From Enterococcus sp. DIV2402 (GTDB lineage: Bacteria > Bacillota > Bacilli > Lactobacillales > Enterococcaceae), in NCBI RefSeq assembly GCF_017426705.2, contig NZ_CP147251.1:248001-312000 (forward strand): a DNA stretch of 64,000 nucleotides. Direction: 5' to 3'. Under the pieces are notes generated by a model, which saw only the letters and a list, made by a program, of their open reading frames with translations, was not told the origin of the DNA and ran no database searches. Every line of letters begins with the position of its first letter. Positions within the stretch are counted from its first letter, which is position 1. Shown here one piece after another: positions 2,973 through 25,198 of this stretch. A program made the translations under genes and the position numbers.

Positions 2973-3234
2973 ACTATTTTTCACTTTCTTTTTACCACTA
3001 TTCATTAACTAAACTATTTAGTTACGAAAAAGTAGTAGAAAGTTTTTTATTTTTTTCTGCGTTTTAGACCTAGTGTTACCGCACTACCGATAAGTCCCAT
3101 ACCAACAATGAACAGTAGCCATGATTGAACTTCTCCTGTTTGTGGCAGATAACCTGATTGATTGGAATTATCTGTTTTGTTATTAGTATTAGGAGAATTT
3201 GACGTCCCTGGTTTCCCATTAGATGTTGTGCCAG

Positions 3235-4125
3235 TAGTTGCGCTTGAACTATCTGTTTCTGTTGTACTGCTTGAGTCAGTCTCGCTTGTACTTTCAGTTT
3301 CTGGTGTACTGCTTGAGTCAGTCTCGCTTGTACTTTCAGTTTCTGGTGTACTGCTTGAGTCGGTTTCGCTTGGACTTTCCGTTTCTGGCGTACTGCTTGA
3401 GTCAGTTTCGCTTGTACTTTCCGTTTCTGGTGTACTACTTGAGTCAGTCTCGCTTGTACTTGTGCTTTCCGTTTCTGGCGTACTACTTGAGTTGGTTTCG
3501 CTTGTACTTGTACTTTCTGTTTCTGGTGTACTACTTGAGTCAGTCTCGCTTGTACTTGTGCTTTCCGTTTCTGGTGTACTACTTGAGTCAGTCTCGCTTG
3601 TACTTGTGCTTTCCGTTTCTGGTGTACTACTTGAGTCGGTTTCGCTTGTACTTGTACTTTCCGTTTCTGACGTACTGCTTGATTCGGTTTCGCTTGTACT
3701 TGTACTTTCCGTTTCTGGCGTATTACTTGAGTCGGTTTCGCTTGTGCTTTCCGTTTCTGGCGTACTACTTGAGTCGGTCTCGCTTGTACTTGTGCTTTCC
3801 GTTTCTGGTGTACTACTTGAGTCAGTCTCGCTTGTACTTTCCGTTTCTGTTGTACTGCTTGATTCGGTTTCACTTGTACTTGTGCTTTCCGTTTCTGGTG
3901 TACTACTTGAGTCGGTTTCGCTTGTACTTGTACTTTCCGTTTCTGACGTACTGCTTGATTCGGTTTCGCTTGTACTTGTACTTTCCGTTTCTGGCGTATT
4001 ACTTGAGTCAGTCTCGCTTGTACTTTCCGTTTCTGTTGTACTGCTTGAGTCGGTTTCGCTCGTACTTGTACTTTCTGTTTCTGGCGTACTGCTTGAGTCA
4101 GTTTCACTTGTACTTGTGCTTTCGG
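3235..4125 (-). repeat. Ser/Thr/Glu tandem repeats of the adhesin stalk (about 20 units of 42 or 48 bp)
   Basis: The coding strand repeats a 16-residue unit of the type SETDSSSTPETESTST or a 14-residue form lacking one Ser-Thr pair. A longer block containing the variants DSSNTPE and ESSSTSE occurs twice, pointing to internal duplication. Such low-complexity stalks span the peptidoglycan and are often glycosylated. Unit number is expected to vary between strains. The repeat period is a multiple of three, which keeps other frames open here; those are artefacts. Confidence 0.9.
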
Positions 4126-7100
4126 TTGTTGATTCTTCTGGTTCTGTTGGCTGGTAAGTATTGGTTACTGTAAATCCGCTACTTGCACTGCCGGATACTT
4201 CGGAATCATACCCCTCTACTGGTATTTCTTCAATAGAATAGATGACTTTTTGACCTTTGAATGTTGCAGGTACTGTCGTGACAGCCTGCCAGTCTTCGCC
4301 AGTCAGAACTAAATCTTTTATGAACACATCGTTGGCATACAGTTTCACTGTTACAGTATCTGGACGTTTGTTTGCTTGGTTTTTCTCATCGATCCATTCT
4401 TTTGTTACAATTACTTTCATCGTGTTTAGATGATTAATCAGCTCTCCATCTCGCATTTCCGCAGTATAATCTGCGACAGGCTCTTCGACAACAGCATACA
4501 CATAAGGTTTCCCTTGCGCATCAATTGTTGGTAAGTCTGCAAAATGATAATGCCAATTGTCCTCAGACAATGTTTGAGCTGGGACATCTGTCCAGCGTTC
4601 GCCATTTCGGGTTACATAGACTGTCACTTCTTCTGGACGCAGCTCATACTGATTGTCCAAATCATCCCAAATTTTATCACCTTCAAGTGTGGTTGTTTGC
4701 AGCGTGTTCGTAATAGTTAAGTCATCATCACTATATATGGTGTCATACCCAGCAACTGGGCTTTCAATAACACGATACGAGATGGTTTCACCAGTTGTAT
4801 CTACTCCTGGTAAATTAGCAAAAGTATAGGTCCATTCATCGTCTTCATCCACAGTCGCTTCAATAGTTTCAGTCATAACTTCACCATCTCTAACAACGCT
4901 TCTTTCTGCCGGAACAAGTGTACCATCTTTGACTTTCATCACTTGTAGATGAATACTTTCTGGTCGCAATCCAAATTGATTGTCTTGATCACGCCATTTT
5001 TTCTCAATCGATAAGCTAGTTGTCTGCAACGAGTTCGTCATAGTGGTAGCTTCTGTCGTTGATGTATAACCTGACACGGCGTGTTCTTCCACCGTATAAA
5101 TAAACTCTTTGCCTGTTGAATCATTGGCAGCTAGATTAACCAGCTTCATTTCCCAGGTCGCAGATGTTTTATCTAACGGCGTGAAGGTCACGTTTTCTCT
5201 AAAGAGCACTTTGGTTTCTGGTTGATCTTTTATTTCGCGGTACAAGTTGAATGTAATACTTGTTGGACGAATACTTTGATCATGTGCATCTTCCCAAACT
5301 TTTTTGATTGTAACATCGGTTGCTTTTAATTCATTAGTGATGACTTTGGTTTGTGCGTCAGAATTATCCACTTCTGTCGTATAGCCGGCTACTTCATGCT
5401 CTTCGACAGAATAAACATAGGCTTCCCCATCTTTATTCTTATCTGCTAATCCTTCAAATTTATAAGTCCAACGACTGCCGGAAGTTTCTGATGGACTAGG
5501 TTCCAAGCTCACCGCTTCTTTGAATAGTGTTTTTGTTTCTGGCTTGCCTTGAACTTGACGATATAAATTGAACGTAATACTTGCTGGACGAACACTCGTA
5601 TCTTGTTCATCTTTCCAAATTTTTTCAACAAGAATATCGCCTTTTTCAAGCAATGTATTGGTAATGGTTCGGTTATCAGTTACCGTTGCTTCATAACCAT
5701 TTGGAACATTTACTTCACGAATCGTATATTCATAAAGTTTTCCTTCGCTGTTATACATTGGTAAACCAGTAATTTCACCCGTCCACGTATTTTGGCTAAA
5801 GAAACCAGCATCATCTGGATTTAAAGTTACGGTTGGATGATTGGTAAAGGCTTCATCCACTTCGCCATCAATCATTGGGACTACTTCAAAAGTGACCGAT
5901 TGACGACTACTATTGTCTGTATCATCTACCCAAACTTTCTTCACATCAATTTTTGTTGTTTGTAATTCATTTTCGATATTTTGAATCAATTTCGTAGCAT
6001 TGTCTTCATCCGCAACAACATCATCTAAATGTGCTTGATAACCAGCTGGTGTAATCTCACGAACTGAATATTCAAACGGTTTGTTGGTATTTGCTTTTTC
6101 AAATGCTGGTAGCCCTGTAAAGTAATACTTGCCTTGCGAATCAGTTGTTGTCGTAATTGGTTCACCATTTGTATCTAATGCTGGCTGACCATCACGTAAC
6201 AATTCAATTGTTACGGTAGTTGGACGAACAGTTGCAAATGATTCATCGCCAATCCAAGACTTCGTACCCGACAGACTAATTGGTGTCATCAACGTATTTT
6301 CTACCGTTAACACAGGTTCTGTACCAATTTGCCAAGCTACTTCAGAATTTGTTCGTTCATAACCTGGTACGACTTCTTCTTCAATCGTGTAAATATATTT
6401 CTCAGATACTTGATTATATGCTGGTAAATTATCAAATGTGTATTCCCAATTTTGGTTCTTAGTGGTAATTGTTGCTGTTACTAATTTTGGTTCTGTATCA
6501 CTTGCTGTATGACGGTAAAGGTTAAGTTGAATACCGTCTGGGCGCGTTCCCCAGACATTATCATGGTCATTCCAAATTTTCCAACCAGTTAATGTAACTG
6601 GTTGGAAAGTATTCGTAATCGTTGTCGTCACTTCACCGGTTTGCTCATCCGTCTCATCTGTATAAGTTGTTTGATATCCATTTACAGGTACTTCTTCAAC
6701 GGTATAAACGATTGGTTCACCCATTTGGTCAAATTTCGGTAAACCTGTGAACGAATGTGACCAGTTATCCTCGCTATCTGGTTCGACAATAGCTGTCACT
6801 AACTCTTCACCGCCCGCAACTAGTCGCGTTACTGGTTCTAATTCATCACCAACGTGACGCATTAAGTTCAATGTAATACTTGTTGGATGCGTGTTTAATG
6901 CATTGTCATTATCTGACCACACCTTCATCGCATGAACTTGCGTGATTTCTAATCTATTGGTAATCGTTACTTTTTGACCCTCACTACTTTTCTCAGTAGT
7001 AATTATTGGATCTTGATACCCATTCACATTTGCTTCTTCCACAGTATACGTATAATCTGCACCAGAAGCATCTTTAAGTGCTAAACCTGTGAATGTCGTA

Positions 7101-10100
7101 CGCCAGCCGTTAGCTGTTAGTGTTGTTTCACTATTTACTTGAACTTCTTGACGTTCGTCTTCATCGGTGGTGTAACGATATAACGTAAAGTCAATATAAT
7201 CTGGACGAATACTTCTGTCTGAAGTGTCTTCCCAAATTTTTTCAATAGTGACATCCGTGGTTTTCAACGTATTCGTAATGTCCACTTGTGTTCCTAATTC
7301 TGCCACATCAATTACGGCATCATAACCATCTGGAACCACTTCTTTGACTGTATAAATATACGTATTCCCATTTTTGTTTTGTTTAGCTAAACCTGTGAAT
7401 AGATGGCTTAATTTGTCTGCTGTTAAGGTCGTTGTATTAACTAATTCTTCCATTTCTCCATCAATATGACGATATAACTGAACAGTAATGTCTGGTTGAA
7501 TTTGTTCCGTATTGCCATCATTTTTATTTTCCCAAATTTTTCTGACAGAAATCGCATCTTGTGGAATTAATTCATTGGTAATCGTAGTCGTCAAACCAGC
7601 GGATGAAACATCACGATAACCGTGTGGTACATCAATTTCTCTCACACCATACGTATATTCTTTGCCATCTTTATTATGGGTTGGTAAGCTAGTAATTTCA
7701 GCTGTCCATTCATCGGTATCTGTCGTTCCTGTCACTTCAATTTGTTTGCGGTTAGTGAAACTCATGTCTTCTTGACCATCAATATAAGGGACCACTTCAA
7801 AGGTTATTTTATCTGGGCGACTTGTCTTGTCTGTTGCGTCTTCCCAAACTTTCTTCACTGAAATTTCTTTCGTTGTTTGTAACGTATTGGTTACAACATA
7901 TTGATTTTCTTCCTCATCAAATGCATAGGTTGGTGTATAACCAGCTAATTCATCTGCTGCCATTTCTCTAGCAACATACACAAATGGTTTCGTTGAATCA
8001 CCTTGCTGATATTGCGGTAAACCAGTGAATTCACCGGTCCACTCATTTGCTTCATTAAGAGTTAATTCATTGATGACACCTGCATCGGTCACTAATTTCA
8101 ATTCATCATCCAGTTGACGGAAGAGTTGGACATGAATGCTAGTTGGTCGCGTTGCTTGTTTGTGGTCTTCATCACCTTGCCACACTTTTTTGACAGACAG
8201 TTTTTGATCCGTAATCAACCCATTGACCACGGTTAATCCTGTGCCATCATCTGTACGCGTGTATCCGTTAATAGCTTTTTCTGTTACGATATACGTGAAC
8301 TCAGTCCCATTACCATCATATTTTGATAAACCAGTAAAGATATGACGCCATGTGTCAGCTGTCATTTCCCCAGTAACAGTCGCTGTAATTGGTTCCCCTT
8401 GAGTATCTAATGCCGGACTACCATTCCGTTTCAGTTCAAAGGTAATTGATTCTGGACGGGTATTCGCTTCATTCTGATGGTCCTGCCATTCCTTCGTTAC
8501 TTCCACTTCATGTGTTAAATCCAGTGTGTTCATAACTGTTAGATGATCATCGCTATACGTTGTTGTATAGCCAAGAAGTGGTTTATCGGTCTCCGTTGGC
8601 ATTTCTTGAACCACATATTCAATGATTGTTCCTTGATTGTCAACTTTCGGTAAATCAGTAAATGCGACTACCCATTTGTTGTCATCCTCATCATCTACGT
8701 CATCCTCGGTTAACGTTTTGGTAATTGTTTCTGACACTAACTCACCGTTTGATTCAGTAACTTTTTGAACAGGAACTAATCCTGAAGCTGTACGACGCAT
8801 TAATTGGAAGGTTACTTCGTCTGGGCGTGTACCAAATGAATTATCGTTGTCCTCCCAAATTTTGGTTGCTTCCACAGAAGTTGTGTCTAACGTATTGGTA
8901 ACTGTCGAACCTGTAATACTTGTTTCGTATCCTGCTACAGGGACTTCTGCAACCTTGTATTCATAAGCCGTACCGTTTGAATCGGTAGCTGCTAATTTAC
9001 CAAAGTCATACATCCACGGTGCCGTAATCGGTTGACTACGCAACGCTTCTTCTGGGAAATCCTCCTCTGTCACAAGTTTACGATAAAGTTCAATCGTTAC
9101 TTGAGCAGGACGTGCACTCATATTTTGTGCATCTTCCCAATCTTTGGTTCCTTGTATTTCTACACTGTTTAAAGTGTTAGTGATTGTTTTCGTTTGACCT
9201 TCATTTTCCAGAGTTGTCGTGTAGCCAGTTACTGCCTCTTCAGTTACTTGATAAATATATGGTTCACCATTTTTATCTTGTGTCGGCAGCTCTTTAAACA
9301 CATAACTCCATGTCCGCGCGTTCTCATCGAAATCTTCTGCTTTTAAGATCTGCGTCTGATAAGCTTCGGTTGAAAAAGGCGTACCTTCAATACTACGATA
9401 TAAATGAACGGTAATTTCACTTGGACGACTACTTGTATCATCTAAATCGTTCCATACTTTTTCAACCGCTACTTCTCCAGGTTTTAAGACAGTATTGGTG
9501 ATTGTCACCTCATTGTCTTCTTGCTGGATATCTTTCGTATACCAGTCTGGTTTATCAGACTCATCTACTGTATAGGTATATTTTTTACCTTCTCGATTGT
9601 GAGTTGGTAAGTCGGTAAATTCAATTTGCCAGTTATCTGAGAGTAATAGTTTATTGGCTCTCGTTAATGATCTGGTCTCAACTTCTTCTGGTTGTCCGCC
9701 TTCAACTGAACGATACAATTTAAAGGTGATTTCATCTGGGCGGCTATTTTCCTCACCAGAATCTTCCCAGACTTTCGTTGCTGTCACTTTCGTTGTCTGC
9801 AACTTGTTCGTTAAGGTTCTATTTGCTGGATCTGGCGTAAATGTGTAGCCATTTGGAACTTCTTCTCGTACTAAATATTCATATTCTTCATTGGCTTGAT
9901 TGTATTGCGGTTGGTTATCAAATGAATATTCCCAATCGTTTGCTGCAGTGATTTTTTGCTCTGTCTCTGCTAACTTAACAAAGTCATCTGTTGAATCTTT
10001 GACTTTACGAGTTAAATAAATCGTGAGTTCTGCTGGTAAAAAGTCCGCATCTGTAATTGGCGTGTTATTTGATCCCATCCAAGTTTTTTGACCCTTGATT

Positions 10101-12248
10101 TCAACTGGTGTTTCCAACGTATTTGTTAGTTCAGTTGCACCATCATTGCTACTGCTCACGTATCCTTTGACACTATCTTTGACGATATACGTAATTTCAT
10201 TACCGTCCGCATCCAATTTTGGTAAGTCAGTAAATGAATAGTGCCCATTCGGTTCTTCCTCTGTTGCAACAAGTTTCGTCGTTACATCTTGACCGCCTTT
10301 TTGAACAGGGATTTCTTCACCTTTCACATACAAGGTAACATCAATGGCATTAATAGCTGCTAACGCTGGTCGTGTCGTATATTTATCATCGTCATCTTGC
10401 CAGTTTTTTGTACCTGCAATAGCGACAGTTGGTAGAGTGTTCGTAAGGGTTGTACCTGTTACTGAACTTTCATAATTTTTTGGTGTATTTGTTTCAACGA
10501 CTGTGTATTGAATTTCTTTGCCGTCTTCATATTTAGGTAAACCAGTAAAGGTGTACGTCCATTCATCTGTAGCAAAGTCGTCAAGTGTCGCATCTGCTTG
10601 TGTCAATGAATTATCGTTTTTCACTACTGGAATAAGATTCGGTTCCTCGGTTGTACCAATGTTTTTCATCAAATTAAACGTAATTGCCGTTGGTCGTGTA
10701 TTAAACGCATTGCTATGATCTTCCCACACTTTTGTAATCGTAATATCAGTTGGATCTAGCGTGTTCGTAATAGTCAATGGTTCAGCTTCAACAACCTCAT
10801 CTGCATCAACAGATACCGGCGCACTGGCAGTATAACCTGCTGGAATATCAGTTTCTACTTCTGTCACAGTATACATGAATGGATTGCCCTCTTTATCAAC
10901 TTTTGCTAAACCATTCCATGCCCCCTGCCAATTTGTTGTCAAATCAAGCGTTAGTGTACGTGAAACAAAACTTGGGTCTGTCTCGCCAGCTTCTGTTTGG
11001 CGAGTTAAGGTGAACCGGACACTATTTTGATGTTCGACAGTAAATCCGTGATCATCCCATACTTTTTTGACTGGGATATTTACTGTGTCTAGTGTATTGG
11101 TAATAGTCACATGTTTCCCTGTTTCAGTAGTGATAGCTGCTTGAGAAGTGTAGCCAAAAACAGCTACTTCCTCGATAAGATACGTGTATCTCTCATTGTC
11201 ACTATTATATTTTGGTAAATCATCAAAAAGTGTTGTCCAATCATTATCTGCATTTAGTGTTGCTCTAGTAAGTTCCACCGGATTGTTGGCATCAGTTGTA
11301 TAACGAGAAAGGATAACAACAATACTTTCTGGTCGAATGCTTTCATCTGAGGTATCTTGCCAGTCTTTCGTCACTGAAATTGCTGTATCTGGAACAAATG
11401 TATTGGTAATCACTTGCGTACCATTTTCTACGATCGGTCCACTTGGTGTGTAGCCATCATTTAAATCTGTTTCACGTACTTGATAGCTATACGCGTTACC
11501 ATTCTTATCATACGTTGGTAATCCAGTAAAGCTATACTCCCAATCATTACCTGTTAGTTGATGCGATGCGATTGCTTGCCCATCCACTTCTGTTTGTCCA
11601 GCTACATAGCGATCTAAAACAAACGTAACCGAAGCTGGTCGATCATTATAATCTGCTGGTTCTCCCGCCCATCGTTTTGCGACTGGCACATCTGTTGTTT
11701 TTAATGTATTCGTAATTTCTTGTCCATTTAATGCAAACTCTAAATCGTCTTCTTCATAGCTTACTTCATAACCATTTAGGCTTTCAGACGCTACTTCTTT
11801 GACTGCATATTCCAATTCAACAAGTTCATCCTCGATGTTTCGGTATTTTGCAAGACCTCCAAAAGTATATGACCACTCAGCTGTAGAACCTGAAATAGTT
11901 TGAATGTTTGCTGGTGTCACAGCTACAAATGGAGCTGAACTATTTTTCTCACGACTGTACAATTGTAATTGAATACTTTCAGGACGTGTCATTGAGGCAA
12001 CTGCTGCATCGCCTTTCCAAACTTTGGTCACTGTAATAGATGTCGAATCTAGCGTATTGGTTAATTCTGTACCGTCTATATTGCTACTACTTGTATATCC
12101 AGCAATCGAATCTCGTACTGTATAGCGAATAAGATTACCCGATGAATCAAATTTTGGTAAGTTCTCAAATTTATACGTATTGTTTGCTTCAAGTGTTGCA
12201 GTCACTGGGCTGCCATTTTTTAACACAGGATCGCCATTACCTAATAAC

Positions 12249-15200
12249 TCAATTGTGACTGGTGTTGTCGGGCGTGACTGGTGTTGTCGGGCGTGACTGC
12301 TGTGAATTATTTCCATCATTCCAAACTTTTTCACCAGATACATCTGTCAATTCTAAAACGTTGGTTACCGTTTTTCCTTCATCAGAGTACTGCGGTGTTT
12401 CATAATTGGCTACTTTCGTTTCTACCACACTAAATGTATAGGCATTGTTTGCTTCATCGTATTTTACGAGGTCTTTAAACGTATGTGTCCACACTTCTTC
12501 ACCGTTTACTGTTTCTGGTGTGACATCTACTGGGTCTACGCCAGGAACGTTTACTGCTGGATTATCTCCAACTTGTCGTTGTAAAGTTAATCGAATACTT
12601 TCAGGACGTGTATTAAAGGCGTTTTCTTGATCATTCCATACTTTCGTCACTTCAAACTCAGTTGTTTCTCGAATATTAGTGATTTCAGAACCTGACGCAA
12701 ATGATGCATTTCCATCAGCATCAATTTCAAAAGTCAATGCATGCCAATTTTCTTCATCAATTTCTTCAAATCTTACTGGTGCAGACGTTTCTTCAATTGT
12801 ATATGAATCTGGGCGCAAACCATTGATAGTTACTTGACCATTGCTGCCTGATGTAAATAGCACAGCATCAGCTTTCACTGTTGTCCAATCGGCATCTATA
12901 TCTACCCGATTATTCGGCCCAGTATAGTACTCGGTTGAACCACCCTTGTCTCTAGAAAGAATGAAGATTGCACCATCAACAGCCGTTTTGTCTAAGCCTT
13001 GTTTTGCCTCACCGTATTTCGTGAAGGTAATTCGAGTTAACTCATTAGTCAAACTAGCTATTTTAGCTACCGGCTCACCATTTGCTGCCCCATCAATTGT
13101 AACTGGAACTTTTGTGGCATTTAATTGATAACCTGGTGCAGGTTTTGTTTCTACAAAATAATAATCACCTGGCGCTAACTCATCAACTAAAATATGACCA
13201 TTTTCATCGGTTGTTAAAGCTTCTTTAATTGGCGTGTCTTCTCCATTTCGATAGAATGCAAACTCCGCCCCTTCAATGCCTTCATTGCTACCATTTTGTT
13301 TTGTAAAACTAACTGAACCTTTGTAGTTTTTCAATTCAAGTTCGTCTGGAAAAACTTGTTCATGCTCATTTTCAATGTCTCCAATAGTAAAAGTTGCTGA
13401 ACCAGCAGTATTAATCAAATAACCTTCTGGTGCACTTGTTTCAACAAAGCGATAGGTTCCTGATCCTAATCCCGTCACATGAACTTTCCCGTCTTTGATG
13501 GTTACCGTTCCTTGAGGCGTTTCTGCTGTATCGCCATCTTTTACGACTTTAAACGTTGCATCTCCATCCTCTAAAGGAATTTGATTGCCGTCTTTGTCTT
13601 GTTTGATTAAAGTCGCTGATCCTTGATAATTCGTTAAAACCATGTCTTCAGAAACAGCAGGAGCACTTCGATCGCTTCTAATCCCTTGAGTTACTTCGAC
13701 AGTTCCATCTGGGGTTTCGAATGGAATCGTAAATTCATAAGTTACATCTGTACGAATGTGATTTTTAGGTGGTGTTTTTTCTTCGATAATATACGTTTTT
13801 CCAGCGTCTAAGCCAGTAACGAATACTTCATTGGTATTTCTAAACGTTACATTACCAACCGGTTTTTTCATTAAATCTGTTCTATCATAAACAATAAATT
13901 CAGCATTTGAACCTGATAAAGAAATCGGATTTCCATCGTCATCAACTTTTTTCAGAACAGCTTTACCTTTATGGTTCGTTACACGCTGTTCTACTGTAGC
14001 ATTTGAACCCGGATATCCTTCTTGAATAGTAATTGTCATACTACTTGTCATTCGAATATATCCATCTGCAGAAGACACTTCTTCTAATTGATACTCTCCA
14101 TCAACTAGTCCTTCAAAGATGTAAATTCCAGTTGCAGCATTAGTTGTAAATATTGAACCAGTTGGATTGAACATCGCTAATCCATTACTATCTATTCCGT
14201 CATAATAATTCCCATCAGCATTCTGCAAACGGAACGTTGCCGTTTTATTAATATTAGTAATTGAACCATCTTCAAATTCTTTAATTACACGTATCTTACC
14301 ACGATAATTTGTAAAAGATTTTGATAGCTCTAATTTGCTAGTCTCGTTATCATTGGCTGTCGAAGAAACTGTAAACGTTAATGGCGTCGTATTACGTAAA
14401 TATGTTGACTCAGCTGGACCACCAGTTTCTCGTAGTTCATAACTGCCGGCACCTAAATGTGGAATCGTAATTTCTCCATCACTATCAGTTACTAATCCTG
14501 TTTGAATTCGAGTAGACCCCCGATACAAATCAAATGTATAGCCACTCTTATCAGTTACATCGTTAGATTCAAAAACTTTAGTTAAAGTAAAGTTTGCTTG
14601 ATAGTTAATCATCGTTTCTTGGGTATCATAATCAGCTTGTGGTACTGTCGCTGTTCCCTCAGTTTGTTCACCTGTGATTGTAAATGCTACATTTTGTGAG
14701 TTTAAAATATACCCATCTAATCCACCTGCTACTTCTACCTCTTCAAATTCGTAATTTCCTGCACCTAAAGCTGGACTTATTACTTTATTGTTTTCTTCTT
14801 CAAACCGCTGTGCATTCGCTTTGTTTCCCCAAGTAATAACACCAGTAGTTGCGTTCTCACTACTATAATATTGTCCAGTGGCTACATTTTTAATAACAAA
14901 TTTTGCACCAGATGTTGGTTCCGTACTAGTATAGACTTTTTCCATAAATGCTTTACGACGATAATTGACTAACGGATCCTCATCTTCGTTTAAGTCAACA
15001 TCTACTGCACCCTCTTCTTTTGTAGGGTCAATTGTAAAATTCGCTGATTTAGTAGGATTAAGAATATAGTCTGGTGCGGCTTTTTTCTCTCTTAAATAAT
15101 ACGTTCCTGGAGCAATTCCTTCGATTTTCACTTCACCAGAGGCCGTTGAGGTAGCTTCTTTAGCAGGAATAACTGTATCATCAGCAGCATTGACTAATTC

Positions 15201-18200
15201 AAAAACTGCCCCGGCTATTCCCTGATTATTTTCATTAACCTTTTTCCAAGTCACTGATCCTTGATAATTAACAATCTTGACTGGATCGATAAGTGTTTGA
15301 GTGCCGTTCGCATTCTCTTTTACTTCAAACGAAATCGGTGCTGTATTACGAATGTAGCCCTCAACTGCTTGCTCTTCAATAACGTAATAGTTGCCTGGTT
15401 CTTTAAGTTCAAGGGTTAAGCGCCCATCTTTTGCTTCATAAGGCGCATTTTCGGTTACTTCAACTCCATCAGGTGCTTCACCTTTAAATAATTTGAAGGT
15501 TGCAAAATTTGTTTGATTACCAATTAAATTACCATTTTTATCTTCTTTTCTTAACTCTACTTTAAACCGTGGATCTTCAACTTCAAACGCTAATGGCGTC
15601 GTTTTATGGTTACTATCAAGATTCAAATAGGTTGAAAAACCTTTTCCTGTTCCTGGTCCACGATCAGCATATTTAGGATCAATCGCATAGCCACCAGGTG
15701 CTTTACGTTCCACAATTCGATACGTACCTGCCACTAAATTAGGGAAAATTAATTCACCCTCTGCATTTAAAGACTCGGTCATTAATTGCGTACGTCCACG
15801 TGAATCCCATAATTCAAATATACCTTGCGTGGCATTTGTAGAATCTAAGGCTTGATTTTCACCTTTTTTAATAATTTTCAAATCGCCACGTTTACCTTTA
15901 CCTGTACCTTTTGAACCAGAAATTCGGACACCTTCTGCAGAAGAAGAACCTCCATCTGTAAGCTCCCCTGCATTTCCTGTAATTTCATATTTATTACTGA
16001 CTTCTGCAAATGCACCTGTCGCATCAATCATTGTTTCATATTCTAAAATATACGGTTGGTCAATAACATCATTGAACGATAGCGTAAATTGCTTTGCACT
16101 ATTATTGATTTCAAGAGTGTACTCACTTGAATCTGCAAGTTCTCCTTTTTCCACATCACCAGTTGCAGATAAGCTTGCTTTATAGACTTTAATGGTGTCT
16201 GCTAAAAGCATACTATCACTATCCTCAGGCGCATCTTCACCAGAAATAGTATCCACTAACTTATAATCACTAATGGTTGACCCATTAGGATTCAATTCGA
16301 TTTTCCAAGCTAGGCGATTGGTGCCTTCAATTTGTTTTCCTTCTTTAACCCCAAATTCATTTCCGTTACGTACAATAACCTCTTTTTCTAACTCATAGGC
16401 TTTGTTGCCATCTACTATAACTGATGCCGTGTTTTTGACTGTCGCATCAACTACTTTGTCATCTTTAAATTTTGTTTGGAAGGTTATGCCTAATGTTTTC
16501 TTTGCTTTGGTTGAGTCATCAAACGTCACTCGGATTTTGGTTGGGTCTGACGTATCTACCGTAAACCCACTTGTTAATTCTTCTGTAATTGTAATCGCAC
16601 CTGTACTAGGATCAATTTGATACACATGCGCTTTAACACTATCTGAAACTAATTCTTGATTCCCAGGCAAAACGTCTTCAATTACGTAAGAACCATGAAT
16701 ATCCTTGCTTTCGTAGTTAGTATTAATAACCCAGTCAATCGTTTTTTCTTGTGGGTTATAGGTTCCTTCTTTATCCCCATTATTTCCAGTAAATTCATGG
16801 TTTTCTGGTAGACCGGGGGTTTCGGTTTCATTTGAATGCTTGTTTTCTTGAGAATCTTCCCAATCAATTTTGACATGATTAGGGAAACGTGTTGTTTTAT
16901 CTTCTTGACGTTCAAAATTCGTCACATACGTCAACGTAAAGGCTTCCTCTGTCACGGCATAATCGCCAATAAAGGTCAGAGTAAACCCTTCATCATTTGG
17001 TGTTTTCTCAAATTCATAGTCGGTACCTTCAATTAAAAGTGTCTCTGATCCTTGGACTCTTAATTCAAGACTGTCATCAACTAATGACAAACCTTCAGGA
17101 AAGGTATCATGAACAATCAAATGATGCATCTCATACTTATTATTATTCAAGCCAATCGACCAAGCAATCGTTTTGTTCTCATAATTTGGCGTTCCTGTTT
17201 TGATAACACCTTGTTGTTCAAATGTTCCGCCACTGTTACTTTCAGAATAACCATCTGCAGCAACAGTGTTTTCTAAAGAAACGTCATTCCCATCAATTTG
17301 CTTGTCCAAGGTTGTTTCATACTCAATGATATACGTGGTTCCATCAATTTCTCCATCAAAGGTTAGAGTGAAACCTCCTGTAGTTTCTCCAGAAGTTTCT
17401 TGTTCAGTAATGGTATATCCTGAGGTAATTGGAGAACCTTTTGTGACTGTTCCATCTTCTGAATTAACCGATGCTTCATAAACACGCACAGCATCTTTAT
17501 CAAAAATCATTGGTTGATTCCAAGTATCAGTGAAAACACCTTGACCCGCTCCAATTTTTTTCATGCCTGTATTGTATTCGATTTGCCAAGTCATGGTTTG
17601 TGTCGCAGGATTATAATTAGTTCGTGTTTTATTTAATAGTTTGCCATATTTAGGTGTAACAGAAGCAGAATCACTGACATCTTTACCATCATCAGATAAC
17701 GTCACTTCATTTTCCCAAACACGAGGGTTCTCTGGATCATCTTCAAAATCGTTATTTTTTACATCAGTCTTATAAGTTATTCGATACGCTTGATAAGCAG
17801 CATCGCCAGACAATTCATTAAATTTGATTTCTAATTCATTGTCACTATTTTTAACAATTGTATACGCATCAGACGCTAAAGGTGTTCCTTCTGATCCAGG
17901 AAGAACTTTTCCAGTCGCTACATCCACTTTAACAGGATAAATGACAATAGAGTCAGGAACTAGGGCTAAATCAGCGGGAATATTATCAGTAATCGTCGGT
18001 GCTACTAGTTTATCCATTGAAGTATTGATATCTACATTCCAAGTAACTGACTTAGGTTGGAATTTACTATCTAATTTTCCTTCCTTAGAAAGTGCTGTTC
18101 CTCCAGAAGGTTTGAAATAAATCACGATTTTTTCTTCGTTCGATTCGCTAAAAGGATTGTCAAATTCTAGTGAGGAACCTTCTTCAATTTTCGTTACATC

Positions 18201-19439
18201 AATAAATGAAAAGATTTCAACTTTCCCTTCAACAATATTCTCTGTGGCTGCTCGCTCATTAAATGTAAAAGTCACTTGACCTTCAGCAGTAATCACGTAT
18301 TCACCATAATCACCCAAATTTCCTTCAAAAACAATTGAACCTGGGGCAGCATTGATGTCTAATATTTTAAATAAAGCTTCAGGTAACTGGAAGTTGTAGG
18401 TATCACCAGCAATTACATCACGTAAATCGCCTTCTTCTAGTTTCCAATCAAATGCAATTTTTACACCTGCTTCACTATACGGGTCTAACGGATGATCCGC
18501 AGATGGTGGATTTCCTTGGCTGTCAGTTAGAATAAAATCTTTAAGTGTGATTTCATCATCAGACAATTCTTTTGGTTCTGTCCGTACTGGCTCATCTTCA
18601 TCAGCCTGGGGACCAACTTTAGCGGCTGATTTCGTCGTTTTCTTTTCTGTCGAAGACTCAGTTGTTTCTTTGATTGATGATTCAGTTGTGGCTTCTGCAG
18701 ACGTATCGCTGACTGACTCAGAAAAATCTACTTCACTGGGTGTTGTCTCATTCTCTGATTCTATTGTTGTTGATTCAGTAGTTTCTGTAGATATTGTTTC
18801 TTCTGTAGTAGTTGAATCAACCGTTTCAGTTTTTTCACTCATGCTTTCAACAGTCGATTGACTGACTTCTTGTGTTTCCTCTACAGTAGTTGCGGTTTCT
18901 TTCTCAGATTCAGGTTCAGGATCCGCTTCGGCTTCACTACTTGTTTCTTCTACAGTAGTCGTTTCGGTCGTGCTTTCTGCTACTATTATTTGTGGTATTT
19001 TTATGTTCTTTTGCTGATTGCCGTTATCTGTTGTAACAATCAACTCTTGGTTAGTAGCAGTTTTGGCAACACTAAGTTTTAACGGGACTTTTGCTGTCGT
19101 TGCTGGTTCTACAATCACTTCAATCTTTTTTTGATTGACTTTAACAATTACACCTGTTGGTAATGGTGACGTACTAGATGACAATTCAACTGATAAGTTT
19201 GCTTCAACTAAATAAGTCTGTTCTTCATCTGTTTTATTTGTCACTTCGGTTTCTAGAGAAACTGTCGCTACTTCTTGCTCATCCTTTGTTTCCACTTCTA
19301 GTTTATTCAGCAAAATCTTATTTTCGACTTGCAAACTATCTGTATCAGCAATTGCCAAAATAGGTGTCATTACACTTTGAATGAGTAGTACAACCAACAT
19401 AAGCAACACGGAAACTTTTTGTACACTTTTATTCTTCAT
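12249..19439 (-). CDS. Giant LPXTG adhesin, N-terminal fragment (signal peptide, adhesive domains, SpaA-type and first Cna_B domains), ends early by frameshift
   Basis: The start is the ATG at 19439, with AGGAGTG upstream; a GTG four codons earlier sits too close to that site. Residues 1-33 are a signal peptide (MKNKSVQKVSVLLMLVVLLI...ILAIADT). About 147-280 is a Thr/Glu/Ser-rich linker. About 290-1180 holds roughly five collagen-binding-like (Cna A/B-type) domains, recognisable by W-x-V/I-x-I/L-N and VxDxxP motifs. About 1180-2257 holds some ten SpaA/prealbumin-like domains (for example GSATLIKQDKDGNQIP with ITNY-type ends). Cna_B domains begin near 2262. The frame ends at residue 2396 just after the 19-bp duplication. 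The product would be exported but lack the sorting signal, so it would be secreted rather than anchored. With one repeat copy removed, the protein would be about 5457 residues. The Mga-like gene next door is divergent and a likely regulator (inference). Confidence 0.92.
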   Translation of the reverse strand: MKNKSVQKVSVLLMLVVLLIQSVMTPILAIADTDSLQVENKILLNKLEVETKDEQEVATVSLETEVTNKTDEEQTYLVEANLSVELSSSTSPLPTGVIVKVNQKKIEVIVEPATTAKVPLKLSVAKTATNQELIVTTDNGNQQKNIKIPQIIVAESTTETTTVEETSSEAEADPEPESEKETATTVEETQEVSQSTVESMSEKTETVDSTTTEETISTETTESTTIESENETTPSEVDFSESVSDTSAEATTESSIKETTESSTEKKTTKSAAKVGPQADEDEPVRTEPKELSDDEITLKDFILTDSQGNPPSADHPLDPYSEAGVKIAFDWKLEEGDLRDVIAGDTYNFQLPEALFKILDINAAPGSIVFEGNLGDYGEYVITAEGQVTFTFNERAATENIVEGKVEIFSFIDVTKIEEGSSLEFDNPFSESNEEKIVIYFKPSGGTALSKEGKLDSKFQPKSVTWNVDINTSMDKLVAPTITDNIPADLALVPDSIVIYPVKVDVATGKVLPGSEGTPLASDAYTIVKNSDNELEIKFNELSGDAAYQAYRITYKTDVKNNDFEDDPENPRVWENEVTLSDDGKDVSDSASVTPKYGKLLNKTRTNYNPATQTMTWQIEYNTGMKKIGAGQGVFTDTWNQPMIFDKDAVRVYEASVNSEDGTVTKGSPITSGYTITEQETSGETTGGFTLTFDGEIDGTTYIIEYETTLDKQIDGNDVSLENTVAADGYSESNSGGTFEQQGVIKTGTPNYENKTIAWSIGLNNNKYEMHHLIVHDTFPEGLSLVDDSLELRVQGSETLLIEGTDYEFEKTPNDEGFTLTFIGDYAVTEEAFTLTYVTNFERQEDKTTRFPNHVKIDWEDSQENKHSNETETPGLPENHEFTGNNGDKEGTYNPQEKTIDWVINTNYESKDIHGSYVIEDVLPGNQELVSDSVKAHVYQIDPSTGAITITEELTSGFTVDTSDPTKIRVTFDDSTKAKKTLGITFQTKFKDDKVVDATVKNTASVIVDGNKAYELEKEVIVRNGNEFGVKEGKQIEGTNRLAWKIELNPNGSTISDYKLVDTISGEDAPEDSDSMLLADTIKVYKASLSATGDVEKGELADSSEYTLEINNSAKQFTLSFNDVIDQPYILEYETMIDATGAFAEVSNKYEITGNAGELTDGGSSSAEGVRISGSKGTGKGKRGDLKIIKKGENQALDSTNATQGIFELWDSRGRTQLMTESLNAEGELIFPNLVAGTYRIVERKAPGGYAIDPKYADRGPGTGKGFSTYLNLDSNHKTTPLAFEVEDPRFKVELRKEDKNGNLIGNQTNFATFKLFKGEAPDGVEVTENAPYEAKDGRLTLELKEPGNYYVIEEQAVEGYIRNTAPISFEVKENANGTQTLIDPVKIVNYQGSVTWKKVNENNQGIAGAVFELVNAADDTVIPAKEATSTASGEVKIEGIAPGTYYLREKKAAPDYILNPTKSANFTIDPTKEEGAVDVDLNEDEDPLVNYRRKAFMEKVYTSTEPTSGAKFVIKNVATGQYYSSENATTGVITWGNKANAQRFEEENNKVISPALGAGNYEFEEVEVAGGLDGYILNSQNVAFTITGEQTEGTATVPQADYDTQETMINYQANFTLTKVFESNDVTDKSGYTFDLYRGSTRIQTGLVTDSDGEITIPHLGAGSYELRETGGPAESTYLRNTTPLTFTVSSTANDNETSKLELSKSFTNYRGKIRVIKEFEDGSITNINKTATFRLQNADGNYYDGIDSNGLAMFNPTGSIFTTNAATGIYIFEGLVDGEYQLEEVSSADGYIRMTSSMTITIQEGYPGSNATVEQRVTNHKGKAVLKKVDDDGNPISLSGSNAEFIVYDRTDLMKKPVGNVTFRNTNEVFVTGLDAGKTYIIEEKTPPKNHIRTDVTYEFTIPFETPDGTVEVTQGIRSDRSAPAVSEDMVLTNYQGSATLIKQDKDGNQIPLEDGDATFKVVKDGDTAETPQGTVTIKDGKVHVTGLGSGTYRFVETSAPEGYLINTAGSATFTIGDIENEHEQVFPDELELKNYKGSVSFTKQNGSNEGIEGAEFAFYRNGEDTPIKEALTTDENGHILVDELAPGDYYFVETKPAPGYQLNATKVPVTIDGAANGEPVAKIASLTNELTRITFTKYGEAKQGLDKTAVDGAIFILSRDKGGSTEYYTGPNNRVDIDADWTTVKADAVLFTSGSNGQVTINGLRPDSYTIEETSAPVRFEEIDEENWHALTFEIDADGNASFASGSEITNIRETTEFEVTKVWNDQENAFNTRPESIRLTLQRQVGDNPAVNVPGVDPVDVTPETVNGEEVWTHTFKDLVKYDEANNAYTFSVVETKVANYETPQYSDEGKTVTNVLELTDVSGEKVWNDGNNSQQSRPTTPVTPDNTSHN
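12255..12299 (-). repeat. 19-bp tandem duplication that frameshifts the giant adhesin
   Basis: Positions 12255-12273 and 12274-12292 are identical 19-bp copies (plus strand GTGACTGGTGTTGTCGGGC), followed by 7 bp (GTGACTG) of a third copy. 19 is not a multiple of three, so the second copy shifts the frame and gives a stop at 12249. Taking out one copy yields the normal Cna_B sequence ...SRPTTPVTIELLGNG. The 7-bp GTGACTG repeat flanking a single unit could have primed the slippage. Confidence 0.93.
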
Positions 19440-19748
19440 CTTCCACTTCACTCCTATATTTCTACATATCTTCTACAACCAAATATCCTTACTTAAAACA
19501 GCTCTTTACATGAAAAAAACGATTACTATTTATCAATTGTTGATACAAATAGCACCGTGCAAATAAAAACTGAAAATGATAACGAACTTGGTATTTTCAC
19601 TAATTTTTAAATAGTAAATATCACTCTAAGAATAGCGAGTTCAGTTTTAAATAGAAACTTCAGTTTTCCAATAACTGTTTTTATGTTTGTGACATTATCA
19701 AACGCTACTTCCCTTGATAAAATAAATAGAAGAATGAGGAACACTGAC
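19440..19748. other. Divergent regulatory region between the adhesin and the Mga-like regulator
   Basis: A very AT-rich stretch of about 310 bp that must hold both promoters. It contains an inverted repeat centred on TATCAATTGTTGATA (19531-19545) with CTATTT/AAATAG flanks (19527-19553). No promoter with a good -35 and -10 at proper spacing is obvious on either strand, which fits activator-dependent promoters (inference). Confidence 0.45.
19527..19553. promoter_or_regulatory. Inverted repeat, candidate operator between adhesin and Mga-like gene
   Basis: The core TATCAA-TTG-TTGATA is a perfect 6-bp inverted repeat. Outer arms CTATTT and AAATAG extend it with a small bulge. It lies about 90 bp upstream of the adhesin start. 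The binding protein is unknown. Confidence 0.4.
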
Positions 19749-21233
19749 ATGGAGGTGGAAGAATATTTAGTATTCTTTTTTATTAGGATGACTAAAGAAG
19801 AAATTATGGATAAATTAAACTCAAAACTTTTCTTAAAAATTAAAATTATTGAAATTCTAAGCAACGAAGCCACCTATCTTTCTACCCAACAATTAACTGA
19901 ACGATTGGGGAATATCAGTGTAAATACGGTTCGACTGACTTGTTTAGAGTTACAGCAAGATTTTGAAAAACTCTATACAGAAGAAGAAGCGAAACTCATT
20001 ATTAGTACACGTCACGGCATTCAATTACTACGCAAAGATATCAATATCCAACTACTAGTTGAAGACTTTTTCATGAATGATTTAAGTTATAAAATATACC
20101 AAGCCTTACTCCTACATAAAGAAGTTTCCACGCTGGATTTTTGTGAACAGCATTTTATTTCTAAATCAACACTTGCTCGCTACTTAAAACGCTTAAATCG
20201 TATTTTAGCAAAACGTCAACTACGAATTTCACTTTCTGATAAAATGATTTTGTTAGGACCGATCAGCAAAATTCGCTCAAATTATCAATATTATTTTTTT
20301 ATGGTGCATCGACGTTTGGATCGATTGACTTGGTTTCCAAATACAGACAAATACCTCAAAAAAACGAAAAAAATTCTTGCTCATTTAAACATCGAGGTTA
20401 GCCAAAATAAATTGCAAACATTAGGTTTAATGACTTTAATATTTGAACAAACTGCTAAACATTATGGTTCTGTTAGCTTAGAAGAACCCTCAATGCAATA
20501 CCATTCGTTTTACCAATTCACTAAAAAACCAACCTTTTTAACAGATTGGTCTGAAGAAGATTGGCAATTTTTTACATTGAGTTTATATTCATTAAATATT
20601 GGTGCGCCTAATTCTTTTATTGAGAAAAAAGAAACACGAATCTTTAAAAAAGATATTGATATTTGGTTAACAACCTTTGAAAAATACTTGCGTCCACTGA
20701 CTTCTCAAGAAAAGACGTTGTTGGCTACCAATTTAGATCAACAAATTCAGTTTCACTCAATGTTTATACTCAACAGCTTATTGTTGAGTATTCTAGGATT
20801 GCAAAATTTCGGTAGTTTTAACGACGATTTTCCTATGTACCATCAGCAATTTGAGCTATTTTGGGAAAAACTCACAAAAAAAGCAACACGCTTTAAAAAT
20901 TCTGATTATCATAAATTAACTTCCTTTTTGTCTTGTACAGCGATTATTGATCCAACAATGTTTAATCCAACCGTCAAATTATTTATTCACTCAGAATCAT
21001 TTTCTTTACACAAAACATTTATGGAAAAGCGCATTAATTATTTCTTGTCACAATACAATGTTCTTTTTGTTTCGGATTACCAGGATGCTCAACTAATTAT
21101 TAGTACTACGACTGTTTTTGAAGTTGTAACGAATACGCCAATCATGTATGTCTATCCTTCTTTAACAAATGTTGATTTACAAAATATTGAAACTTGTGTC
21201 AATCATTTATTTCCTTCAAAAAATCCAACATAA
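19749..21233 (+). CDS. Mga-like (virulence-type) transcriptional regulator
   Basis: A cytoplasmic protein of about 495 residues. The N-terminus has a winged-helix segment (KIKIIEILSN...YLSTQQLTERLG...VNTVRLTCLELQ) and a second Mga-type helix-turn-helix (STLDFCEQHFISKSTLARYLKRLNRIL). A long helical region and a C-terminal EIIB-like fold follow (INYFLSQYNVLFVSDYQDAQLIIST). This order is typical of Mga/AtxA-class regulators, which activate surface-protein genes and may be tuned by PTS phosphorylation. The start is uncertain: the ATG at 19749 has GAGGA 8 nt upstream. Earlier in-frame ATGs at 19683 and 19734 and later ones at 19788 and 19806 are possible, and the recognisable homology starts near 19806. 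It is divergent from the giant adhesin, the natural regulator-target arrangement (inference). Confidence 0.85.
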   Translation: MEVEEYLVFFFIRMTKEEIMDKLNSKLFLKIKIIEILSNEATYLSTQQLTERLGNISVNTVRLTCLELQQDFEKLYTEEEAKLIISTRHGIQLLRKDINIQLLVEDFFMNDLSYKIYQALLLHKEVSTLDFCEQHFISKSTLARYLKRLNRILAKRQLRISLSDKMILLGPISKIRSNYQYYFFMVHRRLDRLTWFPNTDKYLKKTKKILAHLNIEVSQNKLQTLGLMTLIFEQTAKHYGSVSLEEPSMQYHSFYQFTKKPTFLTDWSEEDWQFFTLSLYSLNIGAPNSFIEKKETRIFKKDIDIWLTTFEKYLRPLTSQEKTLLATNLDQQIQFHSMFILNSLLLSILGLQNFGSFNDDFPMYHQQFELFWEKLTKKATRFKNSDYHKLTSFLSCTAIIDPTMFNPTVKLFIHSESFSLHKTFMEKRINYFLSQYNVLFVSDYQDAQLIISTTTVFEVVTNTPIMYVYPSLTNVDLQNIETCVNHLFPSKNPT

Positions 21234-21282
21234 AAAGCATTTCCTCAACTTTTCTAAGACAAAGTTAAGAAAATGCTTTTTT
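21233..21282 (+). terminator. Terminator after the Mga-like gene
   Basis: The arms AAAAGCATTTCCTCAACTTT and AAAGTTAAGAAAATGCTTTT pair almost fully, with a short loop, and are followed by T residues. The stem begins at the stop codon. Confidence 0.8.
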
Positions 21283-21423
21283 ACTGAGTACATCCTAGGT
21301 AGATATAGGTAATTAAACACTTGCTATAATAGACTTTATAACTATTATTATTCAACTTCACTGGTGAATCACCACGGTTCAACCTAGAGATTACTAGGTA
21401 ATTACTGATGATTCAAAATACGA

Positions 21424-21469: not shown

Positions 21470-21477
21470 AATTCAAT

Positions 21478-24400
21478 TTATTTATATTCGTTCAATGCAT
21501 CTTCTGCAGCCATTTGCGCTTCAATGTCTGAAATACTATAAACATTTTCACTTGCAACTGTTACTTCTTTTGGCTCCATGTTACGGTAACGAGGCATACC
21601 AGTACCAGCTGGAATGATCTTACCGATGATAACATTTTCTTTCAAGCCTAGAAGTGGATCTTTCTTACCACGGATTGCGGCATCAGTTAACACACGAGTT
21701 GTTTCTTGGAATGAAGCAGCAGATAAGAAGCTGTTTGTTTCCAATGAAGCTTTCGTAATACCTAGCAATACTGGACGAGAAGTTGCTGGTACACGACCAG
21801 AAATAATCGCTTCGTAGTTGCGATCTTTAAAGTCAGAAATATCCATCAATGTTCCTGGCAAGATATCTGTTTCGCCTGGATCCATCACGCGGACTTTACG
21901 CAACATTTGACGAACCATTACTTCGATATGTTTGTCACCGATTTCTACCCCTTGCATACGGTAAACGCGTTGTACTTCACGTAATAGATAGTTTTCTACT
22001 GAAAGCACATCGCTAACTTGTAGCAAGTGTTTTGGTTCAATTGACCCTTCAGTCAATGGTTCACCACGATTAATCATGTCGCCTTGCGCCACTTTCATAC
22101 GAGCAGTGAATGGTACGACATACGTACGTGTATCTGTTTCACCTTTGATAGTTACTTCTTTTGTACGTGTTGCTGCATCTTCAGAAATATCAACGACTTC
22201 ACCTGTTACTTCAGTGATAACCGCTTGCCCTTTCGGATTACGAGCTTCGAAAATTTCTTGGATACGAGGAAGACCTTGAGTGATATCGTCTCCGGCAACC
22301 CCACCGGTATGGAACGTACGCATAGTTAACTGTGTACCAGGTTCTCCGATAGATTGAGCGGCGATTGTACCAACTGCTTCTCCAACTTCAACTTCGTTAC
22401 CAGTTGCTAAGTTGCGACCGTAACAATGTTTACATACACCATGTTTTGTATTACATGTGAAGACTGAACGAATGGATACTTCTTCGATACCAGCATCAAT
22501 GATTTGTCTTGCGATATCTTCTGTAATTAACTCGTTTGGTCCAATCAATGACGCACCTGTTTCAGGATGGATTACCGATTTACGAGTATAACGTCCTAAT
22601 AAACGTTCTTCAAGAGATTCAATAATCTCGTTGCCTTCGCGAATTGCTCGGATGTTAATTCCGCGGTCAGTCCCACAGTCATCTTCACGAATAATAACAT
22701 CTTGGGCTACATCTACCAAACGACGAGTCAAGTAACCTGAATCGGCTGTCTTCAAGGCAGTATCGGTCATACCTTTACGTGCACCATGGGTAGAGATAAA
22801 CATTTCCAAGACGGTTAAACCTTCACGGAAGTTTGAAATGATTGGTAATTCCATGATCTTACCACTCGGAGCGGCCATCAAACCACGCATACCCGCAAGC
22901 TGCGTAAAGTTAGAGATGTTACCACGGGCTCCAGAGTCTGACATCATGAAGATTGGGTTTTTCGCGTCTAAAGATTCCATCAGTTTTAACTGAATAGCAT
23001 CTTTGGCTGCGTTCCAAACACCAATTACACGTTCATAACGTTCTTCATCTGTGATTAAACCACGACGGAATTGTTTAGTAATTGTTTCAACTTGTTTATG
23101 TGCATTTTCGATAATATCATGTTTTTCATGTAACACCATGATATCCGCGATACCAACAGTGATACCGGCATGCGTAGAATGTTTATAACCTAAGTCTTTC
23201 ATACGGTCCAACATACGAGATGTTTCTGTAACACGGAAACGTTTAAAGACTTCAGCGATAATATTTCCTAAGTTTTTCTTCTTGAATGGTCCAACTAATT
23301 CTTGTTCTTTAATGAATACAGGAATATCGGTACCTGCTTCTACAAAGTACTTGTCTGGTGTTTGTACAGTCAAGTTAAAGTCTGTTGGTTCGTTCAAATA
23401 AGGGAATTCTGGTGGCATAATTGAGTTAAAGATAATCTTACCAACCGTCGTTACCATCAAGCGAGATTTTTGTTCTGCTGTAAATGGTTTGTCACCCAAT
23501 GTATTTGGATTTACCGCAATACGAGAGTGTAAATGAACGTACCCGTTACGCCATGCAGTCACTGCTTCATCCATGTCACGGAAGATCATACCTTCGCCTT
23601 CACGTCCGTCTTCTTCCATTGTTAGGTAATAGTTACCCAAGACCATATCTTGAGATGGAGTAACAACTGGTTTACCGTCTTTTGGATTCAAGATGTTTTG
23701 TGCTGCAAGCATTAACATACGTGCTTCTGCTTGTGCTTCTTCATTTAATGGTACGTGAACCGCCATTTGGTCTCCATCGAAATCGGCATTGTAAGCTTCA
23801 CACACAAGTGGATGCAAACGAATTGCACGACCTTCAACTAAAACTGGTTCAAAGGCTTGGATACCTAATCTATGCAAAGTAGGTGCCCGGTTCAATAGAA
23901 CTGGATGTTCTTTGATAACATCTTCTAAAACATCCCAAACGTCATCTTCGCCGCGTTCAATTTTGCGTTTTGCATTTTTAATGTTTGATGCTAATTCGCG
24001 TTGAACTAATTCGCGCATAACAAATGGTTTGAATAATTCAATCGCCATTTCTTTTGGAAGTCCACATTGATACATTTTTAAGAAAGGACCTACTACGATA
24101 ACCGAACGACCAGAATAGTCTACACGTTTACCTAATAAGTTTTGACGGAAACGCCCTTGTTTCCCTTTTAACATATGAGAAAGAGATTTCAATGGACGGT
24201 TACCTGGTCCTGTTACTGGACGGCCACGACGACCATTATCAATCAAAGCATCAACAGCTTCTTGCAACATACGTTTTTCATTTTGAACAATGATGTTTGG
24301 TGCATTTAAGTCTAACAAACGTTTTAGACGATTGTTACGGTTGATGACACGACGGTATAAATCGTTCAAATCAGAAGTCGCAAAACGTCCACCTTCTAAT

Positions 24401-25128
24401 TGAACCATTGGACGCAAATCAGGTGGGATTACTGGAATAACATCCATAACCATCCAACTTGGTTTGTTTCCTGAAGCACGGAATGCTTCTAAAATATCTA
24501 AACGACGGATTGCGCGTGTACGTTTTTGTCCAGAAGCAGTTTTTAACTCTTCTTTCAATTCAGCAACTTCGCCATCTAAGTCAACAGAATCTAACAATTT
24601 CTTGATGGCGTCTGCACCCATCTCAGCTGTAAATTCTTGACCGTATTGATCGCGTTTTTCGCGGTATTCACGTTCTGTTAATAATTGTTTTTTCTCTAAG
24701 CTTGTATTTCCTGGTTCAATTACTACATAAGAAGCGAAGTAAATGATTTCTTCCAATGCGCGAGGACTCATGTCTAATACAAGACCCATACGAGATGGAA
24801 TTCCTTTGAAATACCAAATGTGAGAAACTGGAGCAGCTAACTCAATATGGCCCATACGTTCACGACGAACTTTTGAGCGCGTTACTTCTACGCCACAACG
24901 GTCACAAACAATCCCTTTATAACGGATACGTTTGTATTTACCACATGCACACTCCCAGTCTTTTGTAGGACCGAAAATACGCTCGTCAAATAACCCTTCA
25001 CGTTCAGGTTTTAATGTACGATAGTTAATAGTCTCAGGTTTTTTTACTTCACCGTAAGACCAGCTTCTGATTTTTTCGGGAGAAGCCAAACCTATTTGCA
25101 TACTTTCGAATTTATTTACATCGATCAA
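21478..25128 (-). CDS. rpoC: DNA-directed RNA polymerase subunit beta'
   Basis: This is the largest core subunit of RNA polymerase and contributes the active-site magnesium and the clamp. The N-terminal zinc site is visible ([19 protein letters not shown]), as is the invariant active-centre motif [15 protein letters not shown]. The C-terminal trigger-loop and bridge-helix regions ([18 protein letters not shown]) and a second [13 protein letters not shown] metal site are also present. I place the start at the TTG at 25128 (reading [16 protein letters not shown]), because GGAGGGAACC lies at proper distance. This gives 1216 residues, the usual enterococcal size. An ATG seven codons earlier overlaps the ribosome-binding site. 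It is transcribed with rpoB after a gap of about 130 bp. Confidence 0.98.
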
Positions 25129-25198
25129 AAGGGGTTCCCTCCATTTCATTTAATGGCTACAAAACAGACGAACAAATCTTGATAAAATACGCTAGAAC

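What the first reader, a model, noticed from the sequence alone, without database searches (positions are those of the whole stretch)
12255..12299. A 19-bp tandem duplication switches the giant adhesin off, possibly reversibly
Seen directly: two exact 19-bp copies plus 7 bp of a third. One copy keeps a single frame from 19439 to 3047 (16,374 bp, divisible by three, about 5457 codons). Two copies give a stop at 12249 and separate the export signal from the LPQTG anchor. Loss of one copy by slippage or recombination would restore the anchored protein. Inference: a contingency on/off switch between a secreted stub and a wall-anchored adhesin. The alternative is an assembly error in a repetitive gene.
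Basis: partly seen in the sequence, partly recalled or inferred. Interest (0 to 1): 0.85.

Follow-up and report, generated by a model that had tools for sequence, protein, structure and literature searches.

The report
Giant surface-protein gene broken by duplication
In an uncharacterised Enterococcus, a gene for a very large cell-surface protein is split into two reading frames by a small back-to-back DNA duplication; it looks like a recent, possibly reversible accident, and nothing found here shows that it is an evolved on/off switch.

Summary
The minus strand holds a perfect 19-bp tandem duplication plus 7 bp of a third copy (45 bp, 12255-12299). It splits a giant Enterococcus surface-protein gene into an N-part (export-type start, collagen-binding and SpaA domains; stop at 12249) and a C-part (26 Cna_B stretches, LPQTG anchor) in another frame. 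An intact 4611-residue relative lies at the same place in Enterococcus sp. CU12B. The nearest relative by rpoB lacks the gene there. The break looks recent: both halves stay open with coding-type composition. Of 34 open frames of that relative that match the window, 32 are unbroken and two run off its ends.

The switch claim is not supported. The tract has two copies. It fits slippage at a 7-bp direct repeat, and 96 such repeats lie elsewhere in the gene. No near-identical second allele was found, and no reads were available. Most likely this is a spontaneous, in principle reversible, loss-of-function duplication, as reported for pneumococcal capsule genes. A local assembly error remains possible.

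The parts
12255..12299 (-). perfect period-19 tandem tract: two full copies plus 7 bp of a third; the point where the frame breaks
12249..19451 (-). N-part open frame (2400 aa from GTG 19451; ATG at 19439): export-type N-terminus, Collagen_bind (5 stretches), SpaA (9), one Cna_B; ends in TGA just past the tract
3047..12343 (-). C-part open frame (3098 aa; frame open from 12346): 26 Cna_B stretches and LPXTG-type anchor; no export-type N-terminus of its own (by eye)
19341..19439 (-). signal-peptide-like N-terminus (33 residues, judged by eye; no signal predictor run)
3050..3169 (-). cell-wall anchor region with LPQTG (Gram_pos_anchor, 20.8 bits against a cut-off of 20)
3285..4127 (-). in-frame 48-bp repeat array (about 18 copies) coding a Ser/Glu/Thr-rich stretch before the anchor
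19683..21233 (+). divergent regulator of the AcpB/EbpR/MafR kind; weak to the NCBIfam model (66.7 bits, cut-off 130)
21478..25149 (-). rpoC; chromosomal neighbour shared with Enterococcus sp. CU12B and G002

Best explanation
This is the gene of a giant sortase-anchored Cna_B/SpaA surface protein of an uncharacterised Enterococcus, interrupted by a recent spontaneous 19-bp tandem duplication. The duplication most likely arose by slipped-strand mispairing between two 7-bp direct repeats that lay 19 bp apart; the partial third copy is the trace of this (inference). Translation should now end just past the tract, giving a roughly 2400-residue exported product without a wall anchor. The Cna_B stalk and the anchor lie in another frame and lack a signal of their own. 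The duplication can in principle be lost again by the same slippage, so the change may be reversible, but it is a chance loss-of-function allele and not an evolved switch. Shown: tract, frames, domains, intact relative. Inferred: origin, recency, fate of the products, reversibility.
For: Tract and frames. Both halves keep low third-position GC in their own frames (0.234 and 0.285) and the C-part keeps 25 K-x-W motifs; 3098 codons without a stop suggest little time since the break. Intact orthologue at the same place in Enterococcus sp. CU12B (4611 aa, one frame; C-part 46% identical over 2296 columns). In 105 family genomes the N-part has 34 listed matches in 28 genomes, 33 of them without a stop inside the matched stretch (at most three candidates scored per genome). 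Of 49 open frames of G002, 34 match the window above 60% identity; 32 of these match in one frame over more than 90% of their length, and the other two run off the window ends. The 7-bp third copy is what slippage between short direct repeats leaves (sequence). The site is one of many comparable repeats.
Against: No reads were available, so the duplication itself could be an assembly error. No second strain of the species was found, so recency rests on the open frames alone. The family matches are only 28-41% identical to the N-part and cover parts of it. The gene has more short direct repeats than its codon shuffles (96 against 63-72), so slippage sites may not be wholly neutral in it.
Confidence: 0.66

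Rival explanations
1. Local assembly or sequencing error: the duplicated 19 bp come from an untrimmed contig join or a mis-resolved repeat, and the gene in the organism is whole.
For: The gene is repetitive at the protein level. It is the only broken gene found in the window. The orthologue is intact. No read data were available.
Against: The 251 bp around the tract are unique in the window, and 45 bp is short against usual read lengths. No other frame damage among the 34 matching frames, though breaks in the outer tenth of a gene would be missed. The perfect 7-bp third copy fits slippage.
Confidence: 0.2
2. Evolved contingency on/off switch: the copy number changes often and toggles between an anchored protein and a secreted stub.
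For: The unit is not a multiple of three, the copies are exact and adjacent, and the gene is for a surface protein, a frequent target of phase variation. One strand of the tract folds better than most shuffles (z -2.50, 2 of 200 as good; the other strand z 0.41). The gene has more direct repeats of at least 7 bp than five codon shuffles (96 against 63-72).
Against: Two copies only. The orthologue in CU12B lacks the tract, and no perfect out-of-frame array with a unit of 10-100 bp occurs in the 59 loci scanned. The precursor 7-bp repeat is not singled out: 96 others of at least 7 bp, one of 12 bp. No near-identical alternative allele seen.
Confidence: 0.09
3. The two halves are both made: leaky +1 frameshifting on the tract, or an independent start for the C-part, gives some full-length or anchored product.
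For: Both frames stay open, and runs of three C lie in the tract before the N-frame stop (sequence).
Against: The needed shift is +1, which is rare in bacteria (recalled). The ATG of the C-part at 12343 has no clear ribosome-binding site or export signal by eye. The tract is not conserved in the one orthologue.
Confidence: 0.05

Closest known systems
Pneumococcal capsule phase variation by spontaneous tandem duplication inside an open frame (cap3A, cap8E/wchA, tts)
   Same: A tandem duplication inside a coding frame silences a surface structure, described as reversible. Known here from passages of PMC4243769, PMC4022640 and PMC2995930. The original papers of Waite and colleagues (2001, 2003) were seen only as references; the 2001 paper was looked up and is not held.
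   Different: There phase variation was reported from cultured strains; here there is one assembled sequence. The gene here is a giant wall-anchored protein, not a capsule gene.
Streptococcus gallolyticus Pil1 pilus phase variation by GCAGA repeats (PMC3894217, passages seen)
   Same: Out-of-frame repeat-number changes affecting a Gram-positive surface structure with collagen-binding and LPXTG domains.
   Different: There 22 copies of a 5-bp unit in a leader peptide tune transcription, and the repeats occur in several strains in differing number; here two copies of a 19-bp unit lie inside the structural gene.
Cna B-type domain-containing protein of Candidatus Enterococcus willemsii (P0036, Enterococcus sp. 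CU12B)
   Same: Same place beside the same regulator and rpoC; same domain families (SpaA, Collagen_bind, Cna_B, LPXTG anchor); the two halves of the window's gene align to it in the same order.
   Different: One open frame of 4611 residues, no tandem tract; 46% identical in the C-part.

Membership tests
Phase-variable contingency locus (simple-sequence-repeat switch) | multi-copy short repeat tract | tested here: not met
   two copies plus 7 bp
Phase-variable contingency locus (simple-sequence-repeat switch) | copy number varies among strains or cells | not testable with these tools
   no reads; no near-identical allele found
Phase-variable contingency locus (simple-sequence-repeat switch) | tract conserved at the locus in relatives | tested here: not met
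   no perfect out-of-frame array of two or more copies (unit 10-100 bp) in the CU12B orthologue or the rest of the 59 loci scanned; only one orthologous locus was available
Spontaneous reversible tandem duplication in an open frame (pneumococcal cap3A type) | exact tandem duplication, unit not a multiple of three, inside a coding frame | tested here: met
Spontaneous reversible tandem duplication in an open frame (pneumococcal cap3A type) | precise reversion observed | not testable with these tools
   needs cultures or reads
Sortase-anchored Cna_B/SpaA surface protein (MSCRAMM-like) | export signal, Cna_B/SpaA/collagen-binding domains, LPXTG anchor | tested here: met
   all present, but on two frames in this sequence; the signal was judged by eye
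Sortase-anchored Cna_B/SpaA surface protein (MSCRAMM-like) | adhesive function | not testable with these tools
   binding not assayed; 'adhesin' is inferred from domains

The most novel reading that the evidence does not exclude
A two-copy 19-bp tandem tract works in the population as a stochastic switch that changes a giant enterococcal surface protein between a wall-anchored fibre and a released 2400-residue N-terminal stub.
Probability: 0.08. Interest if true: 0.6.

Novelty: new member of a known kind. Interest (0 to 1): 0.28.

Why it matters
If real, it is a further case of a surface-structure gene silenced by a small, in principle reversible, tandem duplication, a kind reported for pneumococcal capsule genes, here in a giant sortase-anchored protein. 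It also shows why long surface-protein genes should be checked against reads before they are called switches or pseudogenes.

Tried and rejected
Finding the window's own species: no whole genome is held. The first genome-contig scan, with the N-part, matched 19 stretches, none a relative. The second, with the regulator alignment, gave two loci, both of Enterococcus sp. CU12B. A nearer genome is not in that collection.

Second alleles: the protein search with the N-part gave 29 proteins (7991 best candidates scored). The search with an alignment led by the intact relative gave 35 (1517 candidates scored; hits of 1672-7228 aa). Compared with all 68 proteins held (17 and 23 of them gave a match), the N-part reaches at most 37% identity (P0003) and the C-part at most 46% (P0036). 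A 96% identical regulator is known from 81 JGI contigs, so the same or a sister species is sampled, but its giant gene was not found. No metagenome scan was allowed.

Other origins: a target-site duplication from a lost insertion element was rejected, because 19 bp is long for most such elements (recalled) and nothing lies between the copies. An ancestor without the extra proline in the C-frame was considered: the C-frame reads RPTTPVTIELL where 19 of the 20 other C-part RP motifs have I or V right after RPxx. That ancestor would need more than one event, so the slippage model was preferred.

Literature: phase variation + tandem duplication + open reading frame + reversible gave 8 papers, none opened. 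Spontaneous sequence duplication + capsule + phase variation gave 26, 15 listed; passages of four were looked at, one with nothing beyond references. Phase variation + Enterococcus + adhesin + frameshift + tandem repeat gave 3, none on an enterococcal case by title and abstract start. Two searches gave none.

Full report
What is there. On the minus strand, 12255-12299 is a perfect period-19 tract of 45 bp: two copies and 7 bp of a third. It lies inside a very long gene. The upstream half is open from GTG 19451 (ATG 19439) to a stop at 12249 (2400 aa). The downstream half is open, one base out of step, from 12346 to its stop at 3047 (3098 aa from ATG 12343).

Is it more than chance? Among perfect arrays of at least two copies with units of 7-119 bp, it is the only one in the window with a unit of 10-41 bp; the others are seven with 7-9 bp units and two with 42- and 48-bp units in the stalk array. 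Twenty mononucleotide shuffles gave a single array with a unit of 12-59 bp. In 59 loci of relatives, 511,388 bases with overlaps, two arrays with units of 10-100 bp occur, both of 12 bp and so in frame; identical arrays were counted once and multiples of shorter units left out.

What the gene is. The N-part has Collagen_bind (5 stretches), SpaA (9) and one Cna_B domain; the C-part has 26 Cna_B stretches and an LPXTG anchor just above the Pfam cut-off. The N-terminus looks like an export signal and the C-terminus reads LPQTG, a hydrophobic stretch and a basic tail (by eye). It is a giant sortase-anchored surface protein of the Cna_B/SpaA kind. That it is an adhesin is inference. Upstream lies a divergent regulator of the AcpB/EbpR/MafR kind, below the NCBIfam cut-off, then rpoC and rpoB.

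Which organism. The window is a chromosomal stretch of an Enterococcus species of which no nearer genome was found.

Relatives. CU12B has the same arrangement: giant gene, regulator (57%), rpoC, rpoB. Its giant gene is one open frame of 4611 residues with a signal-like start and an LPKTG anchor. The C-part is 46% identical to it over 2296 columns; the N-part matches by BLAST in pieces (51% over the first 174 columns, 24% over a later 1321) and by the genome search at 41% over residues 4-1811. G002 is collinear on both sides but has about 115 bp where the window has about 19.6 kb between the matched part of the chemotaxis gene and rpoC. In 105 family genomes the regulator at E up to 1e-90 is found in 1. 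The N-part has matches at E up to 1e-60 in 28 of 105 genomes: 34 places, 33 without a stop inside the matched stretch and one (G052) with a TAG; at most three candidates per genome were scored.

Is the break recent, and is the assembly sound? Third-position GC is 0.234 in the N-part and 0.285 in the C-part in their own frames, against 0.39-0.50 in the others. The C-part keeps 25 K-x-W motifs. Of 49 G002 open frames in 60 kb around the locus, 34 had a match above 60% identity in the window; 32 of these match in one frame over more than 90% of their length, and the other two run off the window's ends; 15 had no such match. A break in the outer tenth of a gene would be missed. So the giant gene is the only one found broken. 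The 251 bp around the tract match nothing else in the window. This speaks against a generally poor assembly, though not against one local error.

How it arose and what it does. Two copies plus 7 bp is what slippage between two 7-bp direct repeats 19 bp apart leaves behind (inference). Such repeats are common: outside this tract and the stalk array the gene has 96 of at least 7 bp at spacing 8-60, 29 of them out of frame; one has 12 bp. Five codon-shuffled versions had 63-72, so the gene is somewhat richer than chance, as a gene of repeated domains may be. The site is thus not singled out in the way one would expect of an evolved switch. One strand of the tract folds better than most shuffles as single-stranded DNA (z -2.50; 2 of 200 at least as good) and the other does not (z 0.41), which might favour slippage a little. 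The expected product is an exported N-terminal protein without anchor. The C-part has no export signal or convincing start by eye.

Comparison. Pneumococcal capsule genes are reported to lose and regain function by spontaneous tandem duplications inside open frames. One paper contrasts an irreversible point mutation with that mechanism (PMC4243769, passages), one cites it for wchA of serotype 8 and reports a short tandem duplication in one isolate (PMC4022640, passages), and one cites it for cap3A (PMC2995930, passages). The original reports were not read; the one looked up is not held. Streptococcus gallolyticus Pil1 shows a multi-copy repeat switch for a Gram-positive pilus (PMC3894217, passages). 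The present case fits the first kind in anatomy. Reversion, which would make it a functional match, was not testable. It does not meet the copy-number and conservation features of the second.

Verdict. The switch is possible but unsupported. The most likely reading is a recent spontaneous duplication that broke the gene in this strain, with a local assembly error as the main rival. Intact relatives of the gene exist.

Noticed in passing
window 1913-21476; L055:2742-2858: The giant gene and its regulator (about 18 kb) lie between a chemotaxis-receptor gene and rpoC. The nearest relative G002 has about 115 bp there and a shorter receptor gene (457 codons stop to stop, against 698 in the window), as if the island and the receptor's N-terminal part had been lost.
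   Followed up: partly
window 3285-4127: In-frame 48-bp repeat array (about 18 copies) coding a Ser/Glu/Thr-rich stalk; its length can change without a frameshift.
   Followed up: no
window 12255-12290, C-frame: The C-frame has one extra residue (RPTTPVTIELL) at a point where 19 of the 20 other C-part RP motifs read RPxx followed by I or V.
   Followed up: partly
P0032: A 96% identical regulator occurs in 81 JGI contigs, yet no near-identical giant protein was found.
   Followed up: no
L043 (G052:C24:17699-21160): One of 34 N-part homologues in the family carries an in-frame TAG inside a 2538-codon frame.
   Followed up: no
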